Assembly (NCBI RefSeq): GCF_000733725.1
Contig: NZ_JMQM01000001.1
Span: 1 to 64,000, forward strand
Direction: 5' to 3'
Length of the DNA: 64,000 nt
DNA from: Nitratireductor basaltis
Lineage (GTDB): Bacteria; Pseudomonadota; Alphaproteobacteria; Rhizobiales; Rhizobiaceae
This document shows positions 10 to 35,276 of this stretch, piece after piece (positions within the stretch are counted from its first letter, which is position 1; the number at the start of each line of letters is the position of its first letter). The notes under the pieces were generated by a model, which was given only the letters and a program-made list of their open reading frames with translations, was not told the DNA's origin and did not search any database. The translations under genes were made by a program, and so were the position numbers.

Positions 10-87
<78 letters not shown>

Positions 88-480: not shown

Positions 481-497
481 CTCTCCCATATGAGGGA
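481..497. promoter_or_regulatory. Palindromic operator-like motif, copy 1
   Basis: CTCTCCCATATGAGGGA lies 68 bases before the first gene of the secreted-protein operon. The same motif recurs at 8796, 11385 and 12540, always upstream of a gene of this cluster. The rest of 317-564 shows no gene. Confidence 0.55.
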
Positions 498-564
498 CGG
501 CAGCCGGTTTGCGCCAGTGTAACTCCTGGTCATCGATCGATGACACGGATGGAGAATACGCGAC

Positions 565-1911
565 ATGATCCGTCGGCTTACTAGCAGGATGAACAGCCTT
601 ATTCGCGCGTTGGCGGTGGCTGTGTTGCTCGCCACGGTGTCGGCGGTAGGGGCGGGGGCCCAGAACCAGGTCTCTGACGAAATTGCCGCCAGGAGTGTGA
701 TCCTGTCACTCTTCACCATCAGTTCCATGATGGAGCAGCAGGGCGCGGGGCTTAAGGGTGGTGGCCCGGTGATGACGTCCTTTCGCGCCTTTCTCGCGCC
801 AGAGCTCATCGAGGCAATAGCATCCGGCGAAGCCGGCTTTCGTCCGCTTGCCGGCACGCGCGAAGGCTCGGTGGATGACTACGAGCTGCGGAAGGCGGAG
901 AAGCAGTCCGCGGGGGAAATAATCTTCGAGGCTGCCGTGGAATCCCAGGGCAAGGTCCGTCTCATTTCCTTCTCGGTCGTCCAGTCGAAAGGCCGGCCGC
1001 TGATCACGCGGATCTGGGGCGATGGCTGGTCTTTCGGCCGGGTAGGCGCCGACGCGGCGCAGGCAGCGCCCGGCGGGACCATGCAAGCTGGTTTGAAGCA
1101 ACCGCCGGACAAGGAGCAGCAACAGGCTCTTGCGGCGGCTGATGAGGGCGCAACGGCGGCCAGCGCCAGTTTAGCCGGAGCCGCGGGGCTATCCCTGCCG
1201 TTTCAGGACGCCTTTGACGGCACGGCGCTGGGGCCGCAATGGACTGTCGTTGGAGAAGCGCCCGACAAATTCGTGGTCGAGGGCGGTGTGATCTACACCA
1301 TCGCCACGGGCGGCGACGACAGTTTCCGCAAGGAGGGCAGCGAGAACATCTTCCGGCTCGGCGCAGCGCCGGAGGGCGACTTCGACATGACGCTGACGGG
1401 GCGGCTTGAAGCGAAGACCGGACGGGAAGGTGTATGGGTCGGCCTCTACGAGGATGCGACCAGTTTCGTTGCCGGAACCTTGCACGTCTACACCAGCGGC
1501 TGCGGCCCCTATCTGAGCCTCAGGATCGTCAACCGGCAGCCGGTCACCAATGCAGAGAAATCACTGACCAGCGAGTTCGACGACAACCTGTTCGACAAGG
1601 GACCGATCCTCTCCGACTACTGCTCGGGCGGAAACAGGAAAATCGGTGACACAATTCTGAGCGGCATTAACCAGAGGGGCTTCTCCGTGACCCTGTCGCG
1701 CCGGGGCTTCCGCTATTTCGCGACGGCAGAACTCGATCTTCCGGAGTTCGGAGATTATCCGGGCGGAAAATTCACCGCCACGACCCGCAACGTTGCCCGC
1801 ACTACCGCCGCCGGTGCTCCCGCATTCATGCTGGGACAACTGCAAAAGGCGGGCGAGGGCGAATCGGTTGCGCAATTCGACGGTTTTTCGATTTCGGCAC
1901 CGCCGCGCTGA
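565..1911 (+). CDS. Secreted protein with C-terminal concanavalin-like domain
   Basis: This protein of 448 residues begins with a signal peptide (about residues 1-32, ending GAGAQ) and is probably periplasmic or secreted. Residues about 35-150 form an unrecognised alpha/beta domain, followed by an Ala/Gln-rich linker. The C-terminal 230 residues look like a beta-sandwich (LamG/concanavalin-like). They share a pattern with the C-terminus of the next gene: FxDxFDG, PEGDFDxxL, GCG, FDxNLF, a later Cys, GDxIL and a final FDxFxI. Two cysteines are conserved between the paralogues and could form a disulfide. The next gene starts 33 bases downstream, so the two are co-transcribed from a promoter carrying operator copy 1. 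Function unknown. Confidence 0.85.
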   Translation: MIRRLTSRMNSLIRALAVAVLLATVSAVGAGAQNQVSDEIAARSVILSLFTISSMMEQQGAGLKGGGPVMTSFRAFLAPELIEAIASGEAGFRPLAGTREGSVDDYELRKAEKQSAGEIIFEAAVESQGKVRLISFSVVQSKGRPLITRIWGDGWSFGRVGADAAQAAPGGTMQAGLKQPPDKEQQQALAAADEGATAASASLAGAAGLSLPFQDAFDGTALGPQWTVVGEAPDKFVVEGGVIYTIATGGDDSFRKEGSENIFRLGAAPEGDFDMTLTGRLEAKTGREGVWVGLYEDATSFVAGTLHVYTSGCGPYLSLRIVNRQPVTNAEKSLTSEFDDNLFDKGPILSDYCSGGNRKIGDTILSGINQRGFSVTLSRRGFRYFATAELDLPEFGDYPGGKFTATTRNVARTTAAGAPAFMLGQLQKAGEGESVAQFDGFSISAPPR

Positions 1912-1943
1912 CAGCGGCCACCATAACGTTGGGAATTCAGGTC

Positions 1944-3944
1944 ATGCTTCGTATGTTAAGGATCGCTTCTTGCAGCTTGTCCATATTGCTGCTGGCGGCA
2001 GTCGGCGGAAGCGCTCAGGCGCAGGACATCGGTTCAGCCGTCGCTCTTGTCGAGCAATTCATCGCTGCACACAAGACCGGTCTGGAGACCCGACAAGAAG
2101 GGTTGCTCAACAATGCCAAGGCCGCGGCACCCTATGTGATCGACGGGCTGGCAGTCGACGGTTTGCAGGGCAGGCTCGGCTTCGATCCGGTTTATAACGC
2201 ACAGGACTATGAGGTCTCGAATATCCGCGTCTTCGCGGACGCCGAAGCACCATTCCTGCGCGGGGCGGCGCAGGTCCGCGTCAACCTCGACAATTTCGGC
2301 CAGCATCAGAAATTTCTCTACACGCTTGTGCGAGTCCCGCCGGACAATGCCTGGCAGATTTCGGACATCCATTCGCTCACCAGCGACTGGTCGCTTGCCG
2401 ACATGGCCTACGATCTGGGTCTTGATCTCAGGGGCGCGGGCGGACCCGAAATCACTCTTCGGAATGGCGAGATGCCAATTCCCTGCGCCTTTGCCTGCGG
2501 GAATCCCAATGAACCAGGCAACGGGGGGGACTCCGCTCCGATTGTCGTACCGGGTAAGGAAAGCATTGTGGTTCCCGATCCTGTGGTCGTTCCGGGGATG
2601 GAAGAAGGGGATCTGCCCGGCGATGGCCTCAATCCTGCGGGCCGCAACCTGCTGATCATTCTCGATGCATCCGGGTCGATGTGGGGGCAGGTCGACGGTG
2701 TCGCCAAGATCGCCACTGCGCGGCAGGCCCTGTCGGGCATTGTCGGCGATCTCAACCCGGCCATGAATATCGGATTGATGGCCTATGGACATCGACGGGA
2801 GGGGGACTGCACCGATACCGAAATCCTCTACCCCGTAGCCAATTATGAGACGGGGCGGCTGGTGCCGGCCATTCAGGACATCTCACCGCTCGGGAAAACG
2901 CCCATCGCCGGTGCATTGGAAAAGGCCGCGGCCGCGATGCCTGCTTCCGGTCAATCCTCAAGCGTTCTGCTGATCTCGGACGGACTGGAAACCTGCGGCG
3001 GCGACCCCTGTGCCGCCGCGGCCCGGCTGGCCGCCAGCGGGATTGACACGCGCGTCCACGTCGTCGGCTTCGACCTGAAGGACGAGGAGCACGCGGCGCT
3101 GCAATGCATCGCGGAGCAAGGCAATGGCACTTACTATCCGGCCAACGATGCCCTCAGTTTTGCAGCCGCTGTCAATGAGGCGGTGGGGCAGGCGGAAGGC
3201 GACGCACCGGCCGCGCCCACAGAAAATCCAGCACCCGCGACGGAAACCGTTTTCGAGGATCGTTTTGACGGTCCGGAACGCGATGCGGCATGGCGCGTCG
3301 ACGACGCGATTGATGAACTCACGGCGTTCACGCCCGAGGGCACGCTGTTCGTGGCAGCGCTCGGCAAGGAGCCGATCTTCAGCAATCCCAAGGCGACGAA
3401 CCGCTTCGTACTGGATCGCCCCCTTCCGGAGGGGGATTTCGATCTGGTGCTCGATTTCAAGATGCCTGAGCAGACCCGGCACGAAAGGCTGATGCTCTCG
3501 CTTTTCAATGCCGCCGAGGATCAGGTCGGGGCGCAGATATGGCTCGAACCGTTGGGCTGCGGCACGCGGCTGCATCTCGAACTGACCAGGATTTCGGGCG
3601 GCGTGGATGCTCCGCAAAAGACCGCCTTCGATACCAATCTGTTCGGCGGCCCCTGGGTCGATGGTGTGTGCGAGGCCGAGGGACGGGCACGGGGCGATGC
3701 CATTCTCGAAACGCTGGGCCGTAATGGCGCGCAACTGCGCCTGAAGCGGCGTGGCCGCGAAATCAATGCGAGCCTGGCGATGCGGTTGCCCGGCGATGAA
3801 ACGCTCTCTTTCGACACCGAGGCGATCACCATGCTCCGTCTGTCTGGCGCGGCCAGCATCCTCGCTGGACACGGCCACAAGGCGCAGCCTGGCGAAAGCC
3901 ATTTCGAATTCGACCGTTTCGCCATCGAGGTTCCCCGGCAATGA
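1944..3944 (+). CDS. Secreted von Willebrand factor A domain protein
   Basis: About 666 residues. A signal peptide ends in GSAQAQ, then come an unassigned N-terminal domain, a VWA domain (about 235-420) and a C-terminal beta-sandwich domain (about 440-666) paralogous to that of the preceding gene. The MIDAS motif is visible as LLIILDASGSMWG (DxSxS), so metal-dependent binding of a protein partner is plausible. The domain ends with CIAEQGNGTYYPAND. I start at ATG 1944 because it follows an AGGT-like site; an in-frame TTG lies at 1929. The stop overlaps the next start (ATGA), so translation is coupled. The partner is unknown. Confidence 0.88.
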   Translation: MLRMLRIASCSLSILLLAAVGGSAQAQDIGSAVALVEQFIAAHKTGLETRQEGLLNNAKAAAPYVIDGLAVDGLQGRLGFDPVYNAQDYEVSNIRVFADAEAPFLRGAAQVRVNLDNFGQHQKFLYTLVRVPPDNAWQISDIHSLTSDWSLADMAYDLGLDLRGAGGPEITLRNGEMPIPCAFACGNPNEPGNGGDSAPIVVPGKESIVVPDPVVVPGMEEGDLPGDGLNPAGRNLLIILDASGSMWGQVDGVAKIATARQALSGIVGDLNPAMNIGLMAYGHRREGDCTDTEILYPVANYETGRLVPAIQDISPLGKTPIAGALEKAAAAMPASGQSSSVLLISDGLETCGGDPCAAAARLAASGIDTRVHVVGFDLKDEEHAALQCIAEQGNGTYYPANDALSFAAAVNEAVGQAEGDAPAAPTENPAPATETVFEDRFDGPERDAAWRVDDAIDELTAFTPEGTLFVAALGKEPIFSNPKATNRFVLDRPLPEGDFDLVLDFKMPEQTRHERLMLSLFNAAEDQVGAQIWLEPLGCGTRLHLELTRISGGVDAPQKTAFDTNLFGGPWVDGVCEAEGRARGDAILETLGRNGAQLRLKRRGREINASLAMRLPGDETLSFDTEAITMLRLSGAASILAGHGHKAQPGESHFEFDRFAIEVPRQ

Positions 3945-5059
3945 CCGCGAGCCGAGCGCTTCTTCCCGTTCTGCTTGCGATGCTCCTTGCCGGAACGATG
4001 ATCCTCACAGCCGGGGCTCAGAACGACATGAGCTTCACCGCCGAAGAGGTGGAGCGCGGCGAAAGCCTGTTCGACCGGATAGACGCCGCGCAGGAGGACG
4101 GCACGGGCGGCGAGGCGGTGGGCTTCGACGAGGGGGCGGTTGCCGAGCACGATGCGCTGGCCTGCGCGGCGGGGCTGGGCTGCGAGGGATTGGCGGTTTC
4201 GCAAGACGATGCGCTTGTCCTGACGGGGCACGACAGCACCGAGGCCGCGCGCAAGACCTATCAGAAGCAGTACGGAACACAGGATTCGCAGGCCGAAGAG
4301 CAGGTTCAGGGCGAAGATCGCGAAGCCATGTCTTTTTCCGAGGATGAAGTGGTCAAGGAAGGTGAAAGCCTGTTCGACCGGGTGGATGCCATGCAGGAGA
4401 ACGGCACGGGCGGCGAGGCGGTGGGCTTCGACGAGGGGGCGGTTGCCGAGCACGATGCGCTGGCCTGCGCCGCAGGCCTGGGCTGCGAGGGGCTGGCTGT
4501 CTCGCAGGACGAAGCGCTTGTCCTGACGGGACACGACAGCGCCGAAGGCGCGCGCAAGACCTATCTGGAACAATATGGAACCGAGGATTCACAGGCCGAA
4601 GATCCGATTCAGGGCGAGGACCTGTCGGTCGATGCGGACGAGGGGGACATGTCCTTCTCCGAAGAGGAAGTGGGCGAGGACCATGACGCCATGTCTTTTT
4701 CGGAGGACGAGGTGGCTGACGACGCCAACGGGCAAGCAGAAATGTCCTTTACCGAGGAGGAGGCGCAAGACGGCGATGGGCGCCCGCCCCTCGAGAACAG
4801 GTTTTCCGAGGCCGAAATCGCCGCGTTCAGCAAGGAAGAAGACGCGCTTTGGTCATGTGCTGCCGGTTTCGGCTGCAAGGGGGCTGCCGCGGGCCTGACG
4901 CCACATCAGGCTGTGCACCGGCTGGGCCTGCCGGAATATTCCTATGAGTGGCCGCTCGCTGCCTGTGCCACCAACACGCCGGGAGCCTGTGCGGAGATCG
5001 GAATCAGCCTCATGGATGCGATGCGTATCATGTCGCATCTGGCAAATCCCAACCGTTAA
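3941..5059 (+). CDS. Secreted acidic tandem-repeat protein
   Basis: This 372-residue protein begins with a signal peptide (about 1-27) and then two nearly identical units of about 100 residues. Each opens with MSF(T/S)xEEV and contains the motif CAAGLGC (C-x5-C). Two or three short MSF(S/T)EE(E/D) units follow, then a C-terminal part with a divergent copy, CAAGFGC. The protein is strongly Asp/Glu-rich. The acidic MSF segments suggest cation or partner binding and the three Cys pairs could be disulfides; both are inference. It overlaps the VWA gene by four bases and is the last gene of that operon. I do not recognise the family. Confidence 0.85.
   Translation: MTASRALLPVLLAMLLAGTMILTAGAQNDMSFTAEEVERGESLFDRIDAAQEDGTGGEAVGFDEGAVAEHDALACAAGLGCEGLAVSQDDALVLTGHDSTEAARKTYQKQYGTQDSQAEEQVQGEDREAMSFSEDEVVKEGESLFDRVDAMQENGTGGEAVGFDEGAVAEHDALACAAGLGCEGLAVSQDEALVLTGHDSAEGARKTYLEQYGTEDSQAEDPIQGEDLSVDADEGDMSFSEEEVGEDHDAMSFSEDEVADDANGQAEMSFTEEEAQDGDGRPPLENRFSEAEIAAFSKEEDALWSCAAGFGCKGAAAGLTPHQAVHRLGLPEYSYEWPLAACATNTPGACAEIGISLMDAMRIMSHLANPNR
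4028..4648 (+). repeat. In-frame tandem duplication inside the acidic repeat gene
   Basis: Two consecutive units start at 4028 and 4328. Their cores are offset by 303 bases (a one-codon indel near the start), and about 70 bases are identical between 4098-4167 and 4401-4470. Such identity points to a recent duplication or gene conversion, so copy number may vary between strains. Confidence 0.9.
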
Positions 5060-5089
5060 CAGCCCGCGGGGGATGCGAGCCTGAAACAC

Positions 5090-6907
5090 TCAGCCCAGCC
5101 AGCCGAGCGGACCGGACAGGAGGAGCGAGGTGAGTTCGGACTGGCTGTGGACGTTCATCTTCGAAAACGCCTTCTTGAGATGGCCACGCACCGTGCTGAC
5201 GAGGATACCCAGAGTTTCCGCGGCCTCTTCGGGGGATTTGCCGCCGGCGATCAGAAGCGCGATCTCTGCTTCCTTGCCGGTCAGCCCGTAGGCGAGTTCC
5301 ACCAGCGCCACGCGCGCGTCCGCTCCAAGTTCCCGATCCCGGTTGGTGCGCAGCACCAGAACAGAGGCCGGTCCCTTGCGTTGCAAGCTTGCCTGCCTGA
5401 GCGCGTCGGGGCGAAAGCGGAATCCGACCGGCATGTCGTCACGGATGACGAGGGTGTCGCGACGGTCCGCATGGCTGGCCGGAGCGGCACGTTCTCCGGT
5501 CAAGAGCCTGCGCGTTAGCGCGCCCGCGCTTCCCTCTCCGACGATGGGCAAATCGGTGTCCGGAAACAGCCTGGAAAGCGCTTCGAGATAAATCCGGTTG
5601 GAATGAAGCAACGCCCCCTCGCTGTCGAGAATGGCGATACCGATCTGAAGCCTTTCGATCACAGACTGGAGCAGAACGCCCAGGGTGGCGTTCATCATCA
5701 CCTGCCGGTTGAGGGTGAACGAACGCTCCCAGTGCGGCATCAGCGACAGGATGCGCTTGTGCAGTGCTGCCTCCGCCAGATCGCCTGAGCGTTCAGCCTC
5801 GTAGATCATGCGATAGATGATCTCGTTCCATCTGCTTTCGTCGTCGATGGCATTGTAGCACAGTTCGACAAGCTCTCCCGGGCTCATCTCCGCGGATGCG
5901 CCCGGGCTGCTGGTTGTCGCCAGCAATTTCGCTGCGAGTTCGGCAACGCCGATCTCGGTGTGTCCTTCCTCTGGATGCCATTCCTCGCCCACCCAGCGGA
6001 TGATGCGCTCGGCAATGCCAAAACGCTTCTCCTCCAGAAACAGCGCCGAGCGTGCGCCCTCGATGCGGGCCGATGCGATGTCGTCGAAACCAACCCGTTC
6101 GAGGAACCGTTCAACGGGTGGCAGAAAACCGCCGTCGCGCAGCATGGCGTCTTCACCGCCGAACAGGATCAGGCACCGCGTGCCGGGCACCACGGAGGCG
6201 CCCTTTGGCCACTTCCAGGCTGAAAGCATTCCCGAAAAGATATTGTACCAGTAGGCGGGCGTCGGGGTGGGCCAGCCAAGCGGGTCGGCGATCATGGCGT
6301 CGATCAGGGCGCGATCCCTGCTCATGACATCGGCCGGGTGGCGGCGCTCCTTCAGGTGCGAGCCGAGAAATGCGTAGAGGTGATGCAGGGACTGCTCGTC
6401 GGGCGCTTCCGGAGAGCCCAGCTTGCAACGGGTCTGCGAAAATGTTTTGCCGAACATGGCGATGGCGCGCTGGTTCGGCGGGGGCGAGATCAACACGATG
6501 TGGCGCGCAAGATCCGGCCATGTCTTCAGCACCTCGAGCGTCAGTAGCGCCGTGATGTTGGGGACGACGATCAGCCGGTGTTCCCACGGGATGTCCGCAA
6601 AGCTTTTCTCGTAGAACAGCCGCATGTCGGCAACTGCGCGCTGCCAACCGGCCTCGTAGTCGAGATGTCCAAGCGGATTGCTGCTGCCCGTGGATCTGCC
6701 GTGGCCGCGTATGTCGCCCGAATAGGCATTCCACCCCAACTGGCGGAAGGCTCCGCCCAGATCGCCAAGCATCCCCGAATGGGTGGGTTGGCTATGGCCG
6801 AGAAACACGGCCCTGTGACCGCGTCCTGGTCTGCGGCCCGGGTCGACGGTCCATCTGCGCAGGAGCAGCGGCTGGTTTCCCTCACCCACCAGAAATTCCG
6901 CGTCCAT
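5090..6907 (-). CDS. Alpha/beta-hydrolase-like domain fused to LuxR-type HTH regulator
   Basis: 605 residues. The N-terminal 300 residues follow an alpha/beta hydrolase plan, including the D-x-R-G-H-G-x-S strand (GDIRGHGRSTG). The nucleophile elbow, normally GxSxG, reads VVPNITAL, and the usual catalytic His position near residue 280 also lacks His, so the domain looks like a sensor rather than an enzyme. A PAS-like segment (IGIAILDSEGALLHSN) lies near 400-470. The last 60 residues are a LuxR/GerE helix-turn-helix (LTGKEAEIALLIAGG...VSTVRGHLKKAF). ATG 6907 follows a purine-rich GGGAAGGG site. It converges on the secreted-protein operon and is the best candidate for binding the shared palindrome; its own promoter has no copy. 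Confidence 0.85.
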   Translation of the reverse strand: MDAEFLVGEGNQPLLLRRWTVDPGRRPGRGHRAVFLGHSQPTHSGMLGDLGGAFRQLGWNAYSGDIRGHGRSTGSSNPLGHLDYEAGWQRAVADMRLFYEKSFADIPWEHRLIVVPNITALLTLEVLKTWPDLARHIVLISPPPNQRAIAMFGKTFSQTRCKLGSPEAPDEQSLHHLYAFLGSHLKERRHPADVMSRDRALIDAMIADPLGWPTPTPAYWYNIFSGMLSAWKWPKGASVVPGTRCLILFGGEDAMLRDGGFLPPVERFLERVGFDDIASARIEGARSALFLEEKRFGIAERIIRWVGEEWHPEEGHTEIGVAELAAKLLATTSSPGASAEMSPGELVELCYNAIDDESRWNEIIYRMIYEAERSGDLAEAALHKRILSLMPHWERSFTLNRQVMMNATLGVLLQSVIERLQIGIAILDSEGALLHSNRIYLEALSRLFPDTDLPIVGEGSAGALTRRLLTGERAAPASHADRRDTLVIRDDMPVGFRFRPDALRQASLQRKGPASVLVLRTNRDRELGADARVALVELAYGLTGKEAEIALLIAGGKSPEEAAETLGILVSTVRGHLKKAFSKMNVHSQSELTSLLLSGPLGWLG

Positions 6908-7120
6908 ATCCCTTCCCCCCCGAGCCGTTCAGCGCACCCCAATTCACCAAGTCCAAGCTTTGTCGTTGTTTAACCTCGCTTGCGTGAACTTGGACTGAAT
7001 GGCCTAGCCAGCATTCATGCAGCCGCGTGCGACTATAGGAAAGGGCTCGGCTCGAGTGAAGCTTTCGCAGTCATCCCGCACGGAGACGCGGACAAGGTCC
7101 GTTCGAAGTGGATCGGCGGA

Positions 7121-8146
7121 TTATTCGACGTAGCGCTTGATGGAAAGCTTGGCGGCTTCGAATTCTTCCAGAATACCCGGCAAGAGGCGGTCGATCCCGC
7201 CTTCGGAGGCGTTCTCGCCGACCAGTTTGTCCTGTGCCATGAAGAACAGAACATCGTCGACTACAACGAAGCCGACCGTATGGAAGCGTACCGCAAGATC
7301 AAGCAGGGTTGCTTGCGTGGCCGGTGTCAGGATCTGCAGGACCTCTCGTGACACGTCCATTTCGCCGTCCGTGGCCACGGAGCGTCCGGAGACATGAAAT
7401 TGCTCGTTGAAATGTATCGATTCCGTCTTGATGTCGCGATCGAAGGGCCCCCGGTTGGCAATGTTTTCGGGCCGGATGATCGCGCGGATGCCGGTCTTGC
7501 GGCCGATCCGATAGGCCCCGAGCAAGGAAATGAACTGTCCATATCCGCCCCTGCCGCCGCGCGCGTCGCGCCGTCTTTCGCGCGGACCGAGCGCGGCTTC
7601 CATCTGCATCGCGCCCAGCGCCACCCATAGGGGCAGACCGTCCTGCACGCTCTCACCCCAGAACTCGCCATCGAGCCGCACACCCATGAAGGAGCCGGCC
7701 TGCATCACCGTCAGTTCGGGTATCGCGGTCTCGATCGTCTTCAGGCGCTGCGGCTTCACGCGTTGCGAACGGCGCTCGAAATTTCCGTCGGAATCCCGCG
7801 CAGGCTTTCGTTCGATCTGCCATTCCAGGAATTTTCCGGTGTAGGACCAGTTTCTGTCCCGCGCGATGAGGATCCGGCGCCGGGTTCGGTGGCCGTCAGC
7901 ATTTTCCAGTATTTCCATCAGGAAGATCGTGCCGAAGGCGAAGGTCGTGACGGTGACCGGGACGAACGGAAACCCGCCGCCGCCGAAACCCGCAGCCATC
8001 GTCCAGACAAGGCTGAACAGCACCGCGGGGAGGGGGATGCGTTTGAGCCAGAGGGGGAGCGCGATCCCCTTGCGGATGCTGGAAAGCTCGGGCGTTTCGA
8101 CTTCGATTTCGCCCTCGAACGGATCCCAATGCCGGCGTGCACTCAC
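7121..8146 (-). CDS. DUF3137-like membrane protein, partner of LemA
   Basis: 341 residues with two hydrophobic segments near residues 30-80 and a long cytoplasmic part. The C-terminal half (FNEQFHVSG ... ILTPATQATLLDLAVRF ... VVVDDVLFFM) aligns by eye with the DUF3137 core of the protein at 11474-12388 (FEERFEVFA ... LLTPRFMERIVELTERL ... SLAFIDNRLLI). DUF3137 proteins often sit beside LemA, and here the start overlaps the lemA stop by four bases, so the two are one operon. The molecular role of such pairs is not known to me. Downstream, 6908-7120 holds no gene and carries the promoter region of the LuxR fusion gene. Confidence 0.75.
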   Translation of the reverse strand: MSARRHWDPFEGEIEVETPELSSIRKGIALPLWLKRIPLPAVLFSLVWTMAAGFGGGGFPFVPVTVTTFAFGTIFLMEILENADGHRTRRRILIARDRNWSYTGKFLEWQIERKPARDSDGNFERRSQRVKPQRLKTIETAIPELTVMQAGSFMGVRLDGEFWGESVQDGLPLWVALGAMQMEAALGPRERRRDARGGRGGYGQFISLLGAYRIGRKTGIRAIIRPENIANRGPFDRDIKTESIHFNEQFHVSGRSVATDGEMDVSREVLQILTPATQATLLDLAVRFHTVGFVVVDDVLFFMAQDKLVGENASEGGIDRLLPGILEEFEAAKLSIKRYVE

Positions 8147-8718
8147 GAGCGGCTTCCCGGAAGATCGATCCGAGGCATGGTGCGCACCGCTTCGGCTTCC
8201 GCTTCGGCCAGCGCGAAGGGTGTCGCGCGGTCGAGCCGCATGGCGCGGGCGACCCAGTTGGAAGGGATGGCGTCTAGCAGTGTGTTGTAGCGTTCGACAT
8301 TGGAATTGTAGAGCCGCCGCGCCGCGCTGATCTGGTCTTCGGTTTCCTCCAGTTGCTTCTGCAACTCGCGCACATTGCCCGCCGTGCCGATCTCGGGCGT
8401 GTCCTCGGAATAGGCGACGAAGGCGCGTAGCAGGACTGAAAGTTCGGCCTCGGCCCGTTGAACGGTCTCGATGTCGTCGTTGCGTGCACTCATGGCAGTC
8501 CGACGCGCATCAAGAAGCTGGTCGAAAATCCGGTTCTCCTGCGCCATCGCGCCGCGAACGGAGTCGACCAGCGCGGGAACGAGGTCGTGACGGCGCTTGA
8601 GTTGCACGTCGATCCCCGAATAGCCGGTTGCCACTGCATTCCTGGCCGCTGCCAGCCGGTTCTGCAGATAGATGAGAATGAGTATGACGGCGGCGATGGT
8701 GAGAATGATCGCGATCAT
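8143..8718 (-). CDS. LemA family protein
   Basis: 191 residues. One N-terminal transmembrane segment (IIAIILTIAAVILILIYL-like) is followed by a long helical domain. The LemA signature is clear: YSGIDVQLKRRHDLVPALVDSVRG, then repeated heptad-like helices and YNxxVERYNTLLDAIPSNWVA. LemA proteins are membrane-anchored coiled bundles, often paired with DUF3137 or TPM-domain proteins; no enzymatic role is established. This is the first gene of a two-gene operon, with operator copy 2 lying 78 bases upstream and shared with the divergent symporter gene. Confidence 0.93.
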   Translation of the reverse strand: MIAIILTIAAVILILIYLQNRLAAARNAVATGYSGIDVQLKRRHDLVPALVDSVRGAMAQENRIFDQLLDARRTAMSARNDDIETVQRAEAELSVLLRAFVAYSEDTPEIGTAGNVRELQKQLEETEDQISAARRLYNSNVERYNTLLDAIPSNWVARAMRLDRATPFALAEAEAEAVRTMPRIDLPGSRS

Positions 8719-8795
8719 GCCTGGTGTTGGATGCCTCCCGATACGCTTGGTTTACAACGCGGTTAGATGAGGTATCGGGCCGCAGGCACCCGGGC

Positions 8796-8812
8796 GTCCC
8801 CCAAATGAGGGA
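8796..8812. promoter_or_regulatory. Palindromic operator-like motif, copy 2
   Basis: GTCCCCCAAATGAGGGA lies between the divergent lemA and symporter genes, where one bound regulator could control both. It matches copy 1 at 14 of 17 positions. Confidence 0.55.
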
Positions 8813-8904
8813 GCGGCAAGATCCCTCCGGGGGAGCCTGACAAGGCCGGGTTGGCACAAACAATGGCTGGCGATCTGGCTGCTATGGGTGATACGTAATC
8901 CACT

Positions 8905-10239
8905 ATGCACTCGCCCGCCGACATTCTCGAACTCGCACCGATCGTGTTCGTCCTTTTCGCGCCGCTTGCCTACGCGCTCGTGCGGGCACGCGATACGACG
9001 CGGGCCGACTTCATTTTCAATTCCGGGCGCACGGGAACGCTTGCCACCGTTGCGGGGATCGTTTGCGGGAATATCGGAGCAGGGACATTTGTCGCGCTCC
9101 TGCTCTTTTCGGATGCCAGCCCGATCCTCGGGGTTTCGCTGGCGACCGCATATGCTTTGGGTCTGGTTATCTGCGCCGCGATCGCGCCTGCGGTTCACCG
9201 TCGGTCAAAGCTGTACGGGGTTCACGGACTGGTCGATCTCATCGTGGCGGCGCATGGTGTGCACCACCCATTGGCGATCTGGGCTCCTACCGCATTCGTC
9301 TTCCTGTTGCGCACGGCGGTGCAGCTTCTGGCGCTCGCGGCGATCCTGACGACGATCATGCCCGTTTCGAACCTTGTCGCCTTGATCCTGGCGAGCGGCC
9401 TCACGGGGATCTACACTGCCATTGGCGGCTATCGCGTGGCGACGGAGACCGACGTCTTCCAGGCCGCCGTCATCCTTGTCGGCATCGGTGTGCTCACGGT
9501 TGCAAATCTGGGCGGCATGCCGCAGGTCGATAACCTGTTTGATCTTGGACCCTACAAGTTTCCGCTGCTGGTCGGCATCTGGTTGTTCATACCGGTCAGT
9601 GCGGTGCTTGCCATCGACAACTGGCAGAGGATGGCAACGGCCCGGGAGCCGGCAGTTGCGCGCAGGGCGTTCCTGCTTGCCGCGCCCCTGTGCCTGTTCT
9701 GCTATATGGGCATTGTCTGGCTGGGCCTCAAAGGCCATGCCGGCGAAGAGGTCCTCGCCGTGCTGCGCGTGACCATGCCGGCGCACTGGACATGGCTGGC
9801 CGATGTGATGCTGATCGCCGTGCTCATGTCGACGATGGACACGTTCGTCATGCCGCTGGTCACCAGTCTGGAGCGCACGCGCTACACGCTGCGCCAACTG
9901 CGCCTGACCGTCCTGATGCTGTTTGCCGCGCTGACCGTTGCGGCCTATGCGATGGGGCCGCTGCTCAATTCGATCATCGCCGCCTTCAGCTCGCTGGTGG
10001 TTTTCCTGCCTGCCGTCCTTGCCGCTCTGATGTGGCGGCGTCTCAGCGCTGCGGCTGCGATCGCTTCACTCAATCTCGGGGTGGCGGTCAGCCTGATCCT
10101 GGTCGGCATCGACCTGAATTTCGCCGCTTTCGCGGGTTTCGCGGCAGCAGTGTTCACCTACGGCGTTGCATGGGCGCTCGCAAGGCGGCGGGAGGCGCGG
10201 TCCTGCGGCAGCAGCGAAGTTCTGGAAAGCAGCGGATGA
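8905..10239 (+). CDS. Sodium/solute symporter (SSS) family membrane protein
   Basis: 444 residues with about 12 hydrophobic segments. SSS-family features are visible: an early glycine-rich helix (VAGIVCGNIGAGTFVALL), the segment YGVHGLVDLI, and GLTGIYTAIGGYRVATETDVFQ, where most family members carry the GGxxAVxxTD loop. It is shorter than typical transporters of the family (about 480-550), and may be a sensor-like or divergent member. The substrate cannot be read from the sequence. It is divergent from lemA with operator copy 2 between them, which places it in the regulon. Its stop is 11 bases from the convergent gene at 10251. Confidence 0.8.
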   Translation: MHSPADILELAPIVFVLFAPLAYALVRARDTTRADFIFNSGRTGTLATVAGIVCGNIGAGTFVALLLFSDASPILGVSLATAYALGLVICAAIAPAVHRRSKLYGVHGLVDLIVAAHGVHHPLAIWAPTAFVFLLRTAVQLLALAAILTTIMPVSNLVALILASGLTGIYTAIGGYRVATETDVFQAAVILVGIGVLTVANLGGMPQVDNLFDLGPYKFPLLVGIWLFIPVSAVLAIDNWQRMATAREPAVARRAFLLAAPLCLFCYMGIVWLGLKGHAGEEVLAVLRVTMPAHWTWLADVMLIAVLMSTMDTFVMPLVTSLERTRYTLRQLRLTVLMLFAALTVAAYAMGPLLNSIIAAFSSLVVFLPAVLAALMWRRLSAAAAIASLNLGVAVSLILVGIDLNFAAFAGFAAAVFTYGVAWALARRREARSCGSSEVLESSG

Positions 10240-10250
10240 ACCTGTCCGGG

Positions 10251-10772
10251 TCAGCCGCCGCTTTCGGCTTGCGGGAGGGACTGGCTTTGATCCTCGTCCA
10301 GCACGATGGCAGCGAACCCGTCGCCTTCCAGATGGATTTTGGGGCATGCCCGTGGCTCGCGGTTTGACGGATCGTACCAGCACTCCTTGATCCTGTAGGC
10401 GATCTTCAAACTGGTGCAGGGCGTTTGAGTGTTGATCCCGGTCGTCGTCTGTGATTTCGACATGCCGTTGTCGTCCCAGCCCATAAAGACCCATTGCAGC
10501 GGCAGGCGGGTCGATTCATCATTGCGCGTATCAATGTAGCGCGCCTCTCCATACAGCGCGTAGAGACCCTGTTCCTGCTTGTTCACGGAGACAAGGGCTT
10601 CGGGCAGGCAGATGCCGTTATCGGTTTCACCGGCTTTGATCACGACGAGCAATTCGCCTGCCGGCACGCTTTTCCCGATGTCCTGCCGATTGAACGCAAA
10701 AGCGCCAGCAGCGGCCGCCAGCGCCAGCGCGCCGATGATTGACGAGGCAATGAGATATCTTGAGCTGGGCAT
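10251..10772 (-). CDS. Hypothetical exported or membrane-anchored protein
   Basis: 173 residues. An N-terminal hydrophobic segment (about 8-27, IGALALAAAAGAFAF) serves as signal or anchor. The exported part has four cysteines (GICLPEA, TPCTSLK, KECWYDP, RACPKIH) that could form two disulfides. I do not recognise the family. It starts 15 bases after the Tat-type repeat protein gene and is probably in the same operon, which begins with the DUF3137 gene at 12388. Confidence 0.75.
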   Translation of the reverse strand: MPSSRYLIASSIIGALALAAAAGAFAFNRQDIGKSVPAGELLVVIKAGETDNGICLPEALVSVNKQEQGLYALYGEARYIDTRNDESTRLPLQWVFMGWDDNGMSKSQTTTGINTQTPCTSLKIAYRIKECWYDPSNREPRACPKIHLEGDGFAAIVLDEDQSQSLPQAESGG

Positions 10773-10787
10773 CGGTTTCTCCTGGCG

Positions 10788-11324
10788 TCAGCCCTTCATC
10801 GTGAGGAGGTAGAGGCCGGTGCAAGGCGCTTCGCCGCGATCATCCAGGGCTGCAAGAAATAGCCCGCTCCGTTCTCCCATCCGCTGCATTCCCCTGGAGC
10901 TCAAGTGCCTGATGGTCGCCTGATGTTCCTTGCCGGGTACGAAACTGTCACCGGGAAAGAAACTGTCTCCGGGGAAGAAACTGTCGCGAGGGAAAAAGCT
11001 GTCTCCCGGAAAGAAGCTGTCACCGGGGAAGGCCTGCCTGCCTACGGCGATCTTGAACGGTTCTGACAGGAAAACATCCGTTACCCGGCCCTGCTCCATC
11101 CGTCCAACACCCAGTCTGCCGGATATGGAGCCCTGCAGTTCGGACCGGATGACGATATTCCAGATCAGGCCGCGCCGCAGTTCATTCCCGGCCTTTCCGG
11201 CCAAGGCTTTCGCCTCGCGCAAGCCAAGGTGCAGTCCGGCCGTGCCGCGCGCCCATACCGGGCTGGTGACCAGTCCGGCCATCCCGGTCAGGGCCAGATG
11301 ATTGAAGCGCCTGCGGGTCAGCAT
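10788..11324 (-). CDS. Tat-signal-like protein with tandem FPGDSF hexapeptides
   Basis: 178 residues. The N-terminus MLTRRRFNHLALTGMAGL has a twin-arginine-type signal, which would send the folded protein to the periplasm. A short alpha/beta domain follows (about 30-100). Then five consecutive hexapeptides (four FPGDSF and one FPRDSF) plus a trailing VPGK form a Pro-Gly-Asp-rich stretch likely to make a regular turn structure. The C-terminal 45 residues contain RMGERSGLFLAALDDRGEAPC. I choose ATG 11324 because GGAG stands 7-8 bases before it. Operator motif copy 3 lies about 60 bases upstream. No known function. Confidence 0.75.
   Translation of the reverse strand: MLTRRRFNHLALTGMAGLVTSPVWARGTAGLHLGLREAKALAGKAGNELRRGLIWNIVIRSELQGSISGRLGVGRMEQGRVTDVFLSEPFKIAVGRQAFPGDSFFPGDSFFPRDSFFPGDSFFPGDSFVPGKEHQATIRHLSSRGMQRMGERSGLFLAALDDRGEAPCTGLYLLTMKG
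10941..11030 (-). repeat. Five 18-bp tandem units encoding FPGDSF
   Basis: Five in-frame 18-base units with consensus GAAACTGTCNCCGGGGAA on the plus strand. They differ by scattered substitutions that mostly keep the peptide, except one unit giving FPRDSF. Selection on the peptide is suggested. The number may vary by slippage. Confidence 0.9.
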
Positions 11325-11384
11325 TTTGAATCTCCTGATCGAATTTGCATCGGAAACATTGCTGCACGAAACAGGCTCCCGGTC

Positions 11385-11401
11385 CCCTCCCAAATGGGAG
11401 A
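11385..11401. promoter_or_regulatory. Palindromic operator-like motif, copy 3
   Basis: CCCTCCCAAATGGGAGA contains the perfect inverted repeat CTCCCA-AA-TGGGAG. A further half-like copy in the opposite sense, CCATTTGGGA, lies at 11410-11419. Both are upstream of the FPGDSF gene start at 11324. Confidence 0.6.
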
Positions 11402-11473
11402 GCAACATGCCATTTGGGAAGTGTTCTGGCTCAAGGCTGCATCGGACTTTTCGGTCTCCGGCAGGCGATTTCG

Positions 11474-12388
11474 CTACCGGATCCGATTTCGCGCGCCGAT
11501 GTTGAGGCTGTCGATGATGCCGGTCACCAGCCCCAGTTCGGTCAAGAGGGCGCCGGCACGTTCCCTGCCGTCGCGAACCGGGCGGAAGACGTTGCCGATC
11601 TCGAAACGCCGGGCCGCCGAGCCGATGCGGATGCAAATCAGCAACCGATTGTCGATGAAGGCCAGTGATACGCCGCTCCGATTGTTGAGACGTTCGGTGA
11701 GTTCGACGATCCGCTCCATGAAGCGCGGGGTGAGCAGGTAGCGAGCCTCGATCTGATCGGAGGCGAAGACTTCAAAACGCTCCTCGAATCGTGGATCCTC
11801 CAGCCGGACGCGATCGCCGCTCTGGCGGTATTGTTCCAACGTGTTGCCGATCCAGTCGGTGTCCGCAACAATCGTTGTTATGCCCTTGAATGGCTTGTTG
11901 AAGCTGTAGCTCAGCATCAGCGTGCGCCATTTGGAGTCCTTCTTCGAGAACCTGCCCTCGCACAGATCCAACTCCACGCCGTCGACATGCCCTTTGATCC
12001 GATCTTCGAGGCTGGCGTTCTTGTGGAAGGGCAGGAGGGGTGCGAAGCTGGACAGCGGAAAATCAAACTCTCTAAGCGTGTAGTCGAAGCCGAGATAGGC
12101 GCAGACGCCGCCGTTCAAAACTTGTTTGTAGCGGTTAGTGAGCCCGAGATAGGCTAGGCCCGCACCCAGCAGCGCACCAAATCCGATGGCAAAGGCCGCG
12201 AGCGCCGGCAAACCGCGCAGCCCTCCCGTCAGGGCCAGGATCGCGACGGCTGCAAATCCAACCGCGCCGAGCAGCGTGAGAGCGGTCACGAGCCGCATTC
12301 GCTTCCTCCTGTGCGCTTCGAGTTCCTCGAGAGCAGGCTCGATTTGGCGCGTGTAGAAGCTATCGAAATCCTGTTGGGATGAGGTCAT
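11474..12388 (-). CDS. DUF3137 domain membrane protein
   Basis: 304 residues. A short N-terminal helix (FYTRQIEPALEELEAHRRKR) precedes two transmembrane segments (about 33-85), then a cytoplasmic DUF3137 domain with the typical strings VDGVELDLCEG, DPRFEERFEVFASDQIEARYL and LLTPRFMERIVEL. It is the first gene of a likely three-gene operon reading leftwards into the Tat-repeat and four-cysteine proteins; the 149-base gap contains operator copy 3, so the downstream genes may have their own promoter. The function of DUF3137 is unknown to me. Confidence 0.88.
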   Translation of the reverse strand: MTSSQQDFDSFYTRQIEPALEELEAHRRKRMRLVTALTLLGAVGFAAVAILALTGGLRGLPALAAFAIGFGALLGAGLAYLGLTNRYKQVLNGGVCAYLGFDYTLREFDFPLSSFAPLLPFHKNASLEDRIKGHVDGVELDLCEGRFSKKDSKWRTLMLSYSFNKPFKGITTIVADTDWIGNTLEQYRQSGDRVRLEDPRFEERFEVFASDQIEARYLLTPRFMERIVELTERLNNRSGVSLAFIDNRLLICIRIGSAARRFEIGNVFRPVRDGRERAGALLTELGLVTGIIDSLNIGARNRIR

Positions 12389-12539
12389 GGCGTCATCAGG
12401 ATCAATGCCGCAAACCAGCGATGCGGCACGGCAAAAAAATTGAAATGGATGTCGGCGAACCGGATTGCAGGCACCGCTTGTCCTTCATTTGTTTGAACGT
12501 CGTCATGCTGGATCTTCATGCAGACCGATCTGCGCGCGC

Positions 12540-12556
12540 CTCTCCCAGATTGGAGA
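12540..12556. promoter_or_regulatory. Palindromic operator-like motif, copy 4
   Basis: CTCTCCCAGATTGGAGA lies about 150 bases upstream of the DUF3137 gene. The arms TCTCCCA and TTGGAGA match at six of seven places. It is flanked by direct repeats of GATCTGCGCG (12528-12537 and 12557-12566). The rest of 12389-12605 shows no gene. Confidence 0.5.
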
Positions 12557-34169: not shown

Positions 34170-35276
34170 TCAACGTATCGCCTCGGCCTCGAGTAGAGCG
34201 CGGATCAACTCTGCCTGCCGCGTTACGCCGACTTTCTCGAAAATGCTCGTCAGTTGTGTGCGTGCCGTATTGATCGACACACCGCAACGACTTGCTGCTG
34301 CGGCGCGTCCATCTCCCGCAAGCATCTCCAGGGCAAGCCTTGCCTCGGCAGGCGTAAAGCCGAAGCGATCTTGCAGCAGAGCGATGCGTTGTTTTCGGCG
34401 CCGTTCAGGATCGCTCACCAACAGCATTGCAGCCGGACGCGGCATCCCCGGCACCGCACCGGCAATGCGGAAGGGGCGAACCTCAACGCTCAACGACGAG
34501 TATTCACCTGACCTGACCTTTATTTTGCGGCTGGCCGGGGCAGTGAATCTGGCTGCGGAGCAGGCGACAATGGCGGCATTCAGCTCGCCATTAGAAATTT
34601 CGCTGTGGCAGTGCAGACGGCCCTTTGAAACGGTAATGCCGGATGGTCCTGAAAACAGATCTTCGGCGGCATCGTCGGCGAAAATCACGCGCCCTTCAGG
34701 GTCAACAATGACTGTACCCGTCTCATGGCTGCCGTAGCCACTTTCCAGCAGGAACTTTTCGAATGTCATCCGCTGCATATTGCGGGCGATACCTATGCTG
34801 CGGACAAAGTGGGGAATGAAGTAGCGAAAGCGTTCCTGTGTCTCGGGATCGATTTCATCCCGGCGTTCAGACGCCTGCAGGATGATGCTTGCGAAGCCAC
34901 CATTGTCGGTGAACAAATTCGTGGCAAGACGTTCGGCACCCAAGCCGGAACGCCGCCAATAGTCGTTGTAGAATGGACTGGAGAAGAAACGCTCCCGACC
35001 GGTGAAATCAAGATCGGTAACTTGTCCGACTGGCGAAGAGGCCGTGGCCTCGGCAGTTGGATCATGCGCCCACCAGTGATCTGCATAATCCGATATGAGC
35101 CTCGGGTCCGCCCGTGGCGCCATCACAGACGCGAAACCGATACGTGGGTCGGTGGCTACCAATGCAGCATTTTCCACACGGCAGTAGTCGGCAATGGTGC
35201 AAAGCAGATCAGGCCAGATCTGCGCCTCGAAGGCTGCATCATATATTTCTCCCACAATTCTCGAAACAATGTCCAT
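34170..35276 (-). CDS. LuxR family transcriptional regulator with PAS-like sensor region
   Basis: 368 residues. The N-terminal 170 residues (IYDAAFEAQIWPDLLCTIAD, DHWWAHDPTAEA, FYNDYWRRSG) form a sensor region frequent in rhizobial LuxR proteins. A PAS-like segment (TVIVDPEGRVIFADDAAEDL) lies near 185-205. The C-terminal LuxR helix-turn-helix is FGFTPAEARLALEMLAGDG, VSINTARTQLTSIFEKVGV. There is no receiver domain or recognisable acyl-homoserine-lactone pocket, so the signal is unknown. It stands alone next to the island-end repeat. Confidence 0.85.
   Translation of the reverse strand: MDIVSRIVGEIYDAAFEAQIWPDLLCTIADYCRVENAALVATDPRIGFASVMAPRADPRLISDYADHWWAHDPTAEATASSPVGQVTDLDFTGRERFFSSPFYNDYWRRSGLGAERLATNLFTDNGGFASIILQASERRDEIDPETQERFRYFIPHFVRSIGIARNMQRMTFEKFLLESGYGSHETGTVIVDPEGRVIFADDAAEDLFSGPSGITVSKGRLHCHSEISNGELNAAIVACSAARFTAPASRKIKVRSGEYSSLSVEVRPFRIAGAVPGMPRPAAMLLVSDPERRRKQRIALLQDRFGFTPAEARLALEMLAGDGRAAAASRCGVSINTARTQLTSIFEKVGVTRQAELIRALLEAEAIR

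What the first reader, a model, noticed from the sequence alone, without database searches (positions are those of the whole stretch)
481..12556. Four copies of a palindrome CTCTCCCAnATGRGRGA link the transcription units of this cluster
17-mers at 481, 8796, 11385 and 12540 align without gaps and each lies 60-155 bases upstream of a gene of the same cluster, in one case between divergent genes. I noticed no copy elsewhere in the window while reading. The hybrid LuxR protein encoded in the middle is the natural binder.
Basis: seen in the sequence. Interest (0 to 1): 0.75.

Follow-up and report, generated by a model that had tools for sequence, protein, structure and literature searches.

The report
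Operator sites of a hydrolase-LuxR regulator
Four matching DNA switches mark the promoters of one bacterial gene cluster, and comparison with related genomes says they are read by a regulator of the same cluster whose sensor looks like a worn-out enzyme, so the cluster very probably controls itself.

Summary
The four sites are the only matches within 3 mismatches in the window. The unit is a 16-bp dyad, TCNCYCAnnTGRGNGA. Exact copies occur in 14 of 14 loci with a clade-A orthologue of the hybrid protein (HYB) and in 5 of 7 clade-B loci (39 sites in 405 kb, 0.05 expected). Genome-wide the clade-A form is in 10 of 12 HYB genomes (18 of 19 sites beside HYB) and in 0 of 14 genomes without HYB. Two genomes with the target genes but no HYB lack it nearby. 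Site base 3 changes with the HYB recognition helix: not A in 49 of 54 half-sites under R-G-H, in 4 of 24 under R-T-H. A TA stands exactly 22 bases past the site before sec565 (14 of 14) and lemA (7 of 12), putting the dyad near -42.5, the usual LuxR activator position. The other two sites do not show this. HYB's sensor is an alpha/beta-hydrolase domain whose aligned catalytic Ser and His are replaced in 20 of 20. Most likely a ligand-sensing one-component activator of its own cluster. Binding was not measured.

The parts
482..497 (.). Operator 1, TCTCCCATATGAGGGA, before sec565
   Evidence: matching site before sec565 in 14 of 14 clade-A loci, in L050 and L063 only with 2 mismatches
520..525 (+). 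Predicted -10 of the sec565 promoter (TAACTC); TA begins 22 bases after the site
   Evidence: TA at this offset in 14 of 14
565..1911 (+). sec565, predicted exported protein, no Pfam family; its C-terminal part resembles that of the VWA protein
1944..3944 (+). VWA-domain protein, predicted exported
   Evidence: Pfam VWA 3.1e-11
3941..5059 (+). acidic protein with an internal repeat
5090..6907 (-). HYB: alpha/beta-hydrolase-like domain plus GerE (LuxR) HTH; the proposed binder
   Evidence: Hydrolase_4 2.7e-15, GerE 5.4e-9; both in 20 of 20 members
7121..8146 (-). duf7124, weak DUF3137 resemblance (below the Pfam cutoff)
8143..8718 (-). LemA family protein
   Evidence: 1.6e-39
8769..8774 (-). 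Predicted -10 of the lemA promoter; TA begins 22 bases after the site
   Evidence: TA at this offset in 7 of 12 lemA promoters, the window included
8797..8812 (.). Operator 2, TCCCCCAAATGAGGGA, between lemA and ssf
   Evidence: matching site in 12 of 14 clade-A loci (not in L050, L063)
8905..10239 (+). SSF (sodium:solute symporter family) protein
   Evidence: 1.6e-6
10251..10772 (-). p10254, small protein, no family
10788..11324 (-). ffpgds, small protein with FFPGDS repeats, no family
11386..11401 (.). Operator 3, CCTCCCAAATGGGAGA (one mismatch), before ffpgds
   Evidence: matching places in L046, L048, L050, L063
11474..12388 (-). DUF3137 protein
   Evidence: 1.4e-30
12541..12556 (.). Operator 4, TCTCCCAGATTGGAGA, before duf3137
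   Evidence: matching places in L045, L046, L047, L048, L061, L064

Best explanation
The palindrome is the operator of HYB, a one-component LuxR/GerE-type regulator encoded in the middle of the cluster. A HYB dimer binds the 16-bp dyad TCYCYCAnnTGRGRGA. At the sec565-VWA and lemA promoters the dyad is centred near -42.5, where a class II activator touches RNA polymerase in place of the missing -35 box, so HYB most likely switches these genes on. The signal is probably a small molecule held by the N-terminal alpha/beta-hydrolase fold, which has lost its catalytic Ser and His and would act as a receptor rather than an enzyme. Shown here: the sites, their conservation, their dependence on HYB, the change of the sites with the recognition helix, the -10 spacing at two promoters, the altered triad. 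Inferred: binding, dimer, activation rather than repression, ligand sensing, autoregulation.
For: 39 exact core sites in 21 HYB loci against 0.05 expected. 10 of 12 HYB genomes and 0 of 14 without HYB have the clade-A form, 18 of 19 sites within about 6.5 kb of HYB. The clade-B form is in 5 of 7 clade-B HYB genomes, 0 of 3 with clade-A HYB only and 0 of 10 without HYB. Two genomes with sec565-VWA but no HYB have no core site at 0-1 mismatch in the 20 kb around. Half-site base 3 is A in 5 of 54 (R-G-H) against 20 of 24 (R-T-H) half-sites; one genome, G166, carries both HYB types, each with its own sites. TA at exactly +22 in 21 of 26 sec565 and lemA promoters, no other offset reaching 6; -35 matches no better than chance, 2.4 against 2.7 of 6. 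GerE and Hydrolase_4 in 20 of 20; Asn117 and Ser/Thr/Ala287 at the places of the catalytic Ser and His.
Against: No binding or expression data. G022 and G212 (HYB present) have no exact clade-A site genome-wide, G272 and G146 no exact clade-B site. One clade-A site in G1161 and one clade-B site in G499 lie far from HYB. Sites 3 and 4 and the ssf side of site 2 lack the +22 TA, as do 5 of 12 lemA promoters and 13 of 17 clade-B sites. The helix-site change is one deep split on the tree, not many independent events. L050, L063 and the clade-A sites of other loci contain some A at base 3 (5 of 54). The His alignment rests on a weak second stretch (5.4 bits).
Confidence: 0.8

Rival explanations
1. 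HYB binds the sites but represses: it covers the -35 region and blocks polymerase until a ligand releases it.
For: A dyad at about -50 to -35 overlaps the polymerase footprint; sites 3 and 4 lack the activator spacing.
Against: No -35 box better than chance, so polymerase would need help; fixed 22-base spacing at the usual LuxR activator position (PMC4471428 passage).
Confidence: 0.13
2. The sites belong to another regulator of the genome, and HYB is only a passenger of the cluster.
For: No binding data; the genomes hold other GerE proteins, one of them in the window at 34188-34883.
Against: Sites follow HYB presence, are absent around the target genes where HYB is absent, and change with the HYB helix even inside one genome.
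Confidence: 0.05
3. The palindromes are copies of a spreading repeat or form RNA hairpins, with no protein binder.
For: The genome has a palindromic repeat of similar look, TCCCCCACAAGGGGGG, at least 13 exact copies.
Against: Flanks are unconserved, 0.27-0.40 identity against 0.85-0.90 at the site (partly built in, as sites were chosen by the motif); at sec565 and lemA the sites lie upstream of the -10 and would not be transcribed; they do not spread outside the cluster.
Confidence: 0.02

Closest known systems
LuxR-type activators at a lux box centred at -42.5 (quorum-sensing LuxR proteins)
   Same: GerE HTH; palindromic site; inferred centre at -42.5 (PMC4471428, passage seen)
   Different: Dyad of 16 bp and other sequence, against 20 bp; no autoinducer-binding domain among the Pfam matches
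NarL/FixJ response regulators (NarL, VraR, LiaR)
   Same: GerE HTH is most like theirs among solved structures
   Different: No receiver domain among the Pfam matches
Monoacylglycerol lipases / S33 hydrolases
   Same: N-terminal domain: Pfam Hydrolase_4, profile match to Mtb monoacylglycerol lipase 6.4e-6
   Different: Aligned catalytic Ser is Asn and aligned His is Ser, Thr or Ala in 20 of 20
Plant DAD2/D14/KAI2 strigolactone and karrikin receptors
   Same: Alpha/beta-hydrolase fold used as a receptor (recalled); they are among the Foldseek matches
   Different: Low-confidence model (mean pLDDT 53) and rmsd above 9 A in the 50 rows shown, so no evidence of kinship; they are not DNA-binding and keep their triad (recalled)

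Membership tests
LuxR/GerE HTH superfamily | GerE domain (PF00196) above its cutoff | tested here: met
   window 36.0 bits against cutoff 23.5; matched at E up to 0.01 in 20 of 20
LuxR quorum-sensing (autoinducer) regulators | autoinducer-binding domain | tested here: not met
   absent from the 11 families matched by any of 20 members at E up to 0.01
NarL/FixJ response regulators | receiver domain | tested here: not met
   absent from the 11 families
Active S33 / monoacylglycerol-lipase-type hydrolases | Ser-Asp-His triad | tested here: not met
   aligned residues Asn117, Asp253, Ser/Thr/Ala287 in 20 of 20
Class II LuxR-type activation | operator centred near -42.5 next to a -10 and without a -35 box | tested here: inconclusive
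   fits at sec565 (14 of 14) and lemA (7 of 12), not at sites 3 and 4; start sites not mapped
Class II LuxR-type activation | regulator-dependent rise of transcription | not testable with these tools
   needs expression data

The most novel reading that the evidence does not exclude
A family of bacterial receptors in which a catalytically dead alpha/beta-hydrolase is the ligand sensor of a LuxR-type activator, with two DNA-recognition codes (an R-G-H helix reads TCYCYCA, an R-T-H helix reads TCACYCA) that coexist without mixing in one cell, each governing one private cluster built around exported VWA proteins and, in most loci, LemA and DUF3137-like proteins.
Probability: 0.6. Interest if true: 0.62.

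Novelty: new variant of a known kind. Interest (0 to 1): 0.52.

Why it matters
A regulator, its operator code and what looks like its whole private regulon could be read from sequence alone, with a natural specificity switch to test at one or two residues (571 and 575). It also gives a handle, the ligand of the dead hydrolase, on an uncharacterised, patchily inherited cluster of exported and membrane proteins in Hyphomicrobiales. As a cluster-specific regulator with local operators it is otherwise of a familiar kind.

Tried and rejected
Rejected: the 17-mer as the unit (a 16-bp dyad fits better). Rejected: symmetric control of lemA and ssf from site 2 (only the lemA side has the -10 spacing). 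Rejected: the six extra one-mismatch places of the own genome as regulon members (all inside mechanical ORFs). Rejected: the tRNA-Met at window 10-86 as a conserved island boundary (of 16 related loci scanned 15 have no tRNA and one has tRNA-Arg). Defence function: PADLOC gave one weak match to the HTH region only; NCBIfam gave no match above its cutoff. AF2 with 6 sequences gave a poor model (mean pLDDT 53), so the fold matches serve only as agreement with the sequence result. Searches for a described hydrolase-LuxR fusion: I saw only the listed titles and starts of abstracts (15, 2 and 10 papers; searches had more than they listed) and recognised none as this family; two searches returned nothing. 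This covers one open-licence library only. NarL base contacts were looked for and not found.

Names: sec565, duf7124, ffpgds, p10254, HYB are labels of mine. Clade A means HYB with R-G-H and clade B means HYB with R-T-H; clade B is one side of a branch and not shown to be a clade.

Full report
Observation. The repeating unit is a 16-bp dyad. Start codons lie 61 to 152 bp from the sites. In the own genome the pattern TCYCCCANATKRGRGA without mismatch hits only three of the four sites; site 3 has one mismatch, as do six places elsewhere. All six lie in mechanically called ORFs; one of them is a single base away from the repeat TCCCCCACAAGGGGGG, which has at least 13 exact copies in the list.

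The cluster. sec565, a VWA protein and an acidic repeat protein run on the plus strand; HYB, a protein weakly like DUF3137 and LemA on the minus strand; then an SSF-family protein (+), two small proteins and a DUF3137 protein (-). HYB has a Hydrolase_4 and a GerE match in 20 of 20 aligned members.

Distribution of HYB. A relative at E up to 1e-60 was found in 10 of 394 genomes of the family, 5 of 397 of the order and 1 of 385 of the class, each count including the own genome and the samples overlapping. Further sampling around carriers gave 5 of 10, 2 of 10, 5 of 87 and 2 of 4. Five named loci came from one scan: Nitratireductor aquibiodomus, Nitratireductor sp. B36, N. aquimarinus, Pelagibacterium xiamenense and a MAG. 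HYB is patchy, which makes its presence and absence informative.

The sites follow HYB. In 21 HYB loci (first 20 kb of each; 405 kb) there are 39 exact core sites TCNCYCANNTGRGNGA; 20 simulations of the same dinucleotide make-up gave mean 0.05, largest 1. 14 of 14 clade-A and 5 of 7 clade-B loci hold at least one. They stand before the same genes: before sec565 in 14 of 14 clade-A loci (L050 and L063 with 2 mismatches), before lemA in 12 of 14. Around the sites the ungapped identity falls from 0.85-0.90 to 0.27-0.40; the sites were chosen by the motif, so this contrast is partly built in. Whole-genome scans are free of that: TCYCYCANNTGRGRGA without mismatch is in 10 of 12 HYB genomes (19 sites, 18 within about 6.5 kb of HYB; G022 and G212 have none; one site of G1161 lies far away) and in 0 of 14 genomes without HYB. 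The backward control pattern had one match, in G525. TCACYCANNTGRGTGA is in 5 of 7 clade-B HYB genomes (11 sites, 10 within about 10 kb of HYB; none in G272 and G146; the one in G499 is far away), in 0 of 3 genomes with clade-A HYB only and in 0 of 10 without HYB.

Targets without HYB. Of 388 genomes, two (G041, G139) have a near-full-length VWA relative (48%) but are not among the HYB matches. Both keep the sec565-VWA pair in other surroundings. In about 20 kb around it neither has a core site with 0 or 1 mismatch; one has two places with 2 mismatches, not before these genes, and no HYB match appears. The motif thus follows the regulator, not the targets. This control rests on two genomes.

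Helix and site change together. The recognition helix reads STVRGHLKK or STARGHLKK in clade A and HTVRTHLKR, NTIRTHLKR or HTTRTHLKR in clade B. In 20 aligned members residue 575 is Gly with Ser571 and Thr with His/Asn571. Half-site base 3 is C or T in 49 of 54 clade-A half-sites and A in 20 of 24 clade-B half-sites; the Fisher value of 2e-10 treats related half-sites as independent and is too strong. In a tree of HYB without its HTH one 100/100 branch separates the groups, so this is one deep change with its descendants. In NarL the residue at this place of the helix touches bases (recalled; not found); for the related DegU this helix is described as the base-reading one (PMC9263151, passages seen).

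Promoter geometry. Past the site end TA stands after exactly 22 bases in 14 of 14 sec565 and 7 of 12 lemA promoters, and no other offset reaches 6 of 26. TA is 1.7% of dinucleotides there. Taking TA as the start of the -10 puts the dyad centre near -42.5, the usual place for LuxR homologues (PMC4471428, passage seen). Over 21 such promoters the best -35 match averages 2.4 of 6 against 2.7 by chance. In clade B, not used to find the spacing, the TA is present at 4 of 17 sites, all four facing VWA genes (L065, L066, L074, L086); the VWA-facing sites of L067 and L068, which have one mismatch, lack it, as do the other clade-B sites. Sites 3 and 4 of the window and the ssf side of site 2 do not show it.

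Sensor. A profile of 17 N-terminal domains matches Mtb monoacylglycerol lipase (6.4e-6). Asn117 aligns with the nucleophile Ser and Asp253 with Asp; Ser287 aligns with the His, in a weak second stretch of 5.4 bits (which lipase residues are catalytic is recalled). Across 20 members 117 is always Asn, 253 always Asp and 287 is Ser, Thr or Ala. A bound ligand is therefore likelier than hydrolysis. The predicted structure is poor and adds only that alpha/beta hydrolases lead the matches.

Conclusion. HYB most likely activates at least the sec565-VWA operon and lemA-duf7124 from class II sites. It may regulate itself: in L065 and L074 a site lies 84 and 171 bp before HYB, though without the spaced TA. 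The ligand and the purpose of the exported proteins are unknown; a surface or envelope role is a guess from the predicted export and the VWA and LemA families.

Noticed in passing
10788-11324 (-): The small protein carries about six near-copies of the peptide FFPGDS in tandem; orthologues exist in L048, L050 and L063.
   Followed up: no
4020-4620: The acidic protein 3941-5059 holds two near-identical stretches (ESLFDR...VGFDEGAVAEHDALACAAGLGCEG...).
   Followed up: no
1201-1893 and 3195-3935: sec565 and the VWA protein share a related C-terminal domain of about 230 residues (30%), as if duplicated.
   Followed up: no
34188-34883 (-): A second GerE protein in the window resembles the C-terminal part of HYB (25% over residues 368-598).
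   Followed up: no
own genome, many places, e.g. L009 2634: A palindromic repeat TCCCCCACAAGGGGGG occurs in at least 13 exact copies, in places as close pairs in opposite orientation.
   Followed up: no
8143-8718 (-): The LemA protein matches the magnetosome protein model MamQ at 7.3e-17, far below its cutoff.
   Followed up: no
8860-8904: A block ending in TGATAC just before ssf is conserved in several relatives and looks like a separate promoter for ssf.
   Followed up: partly
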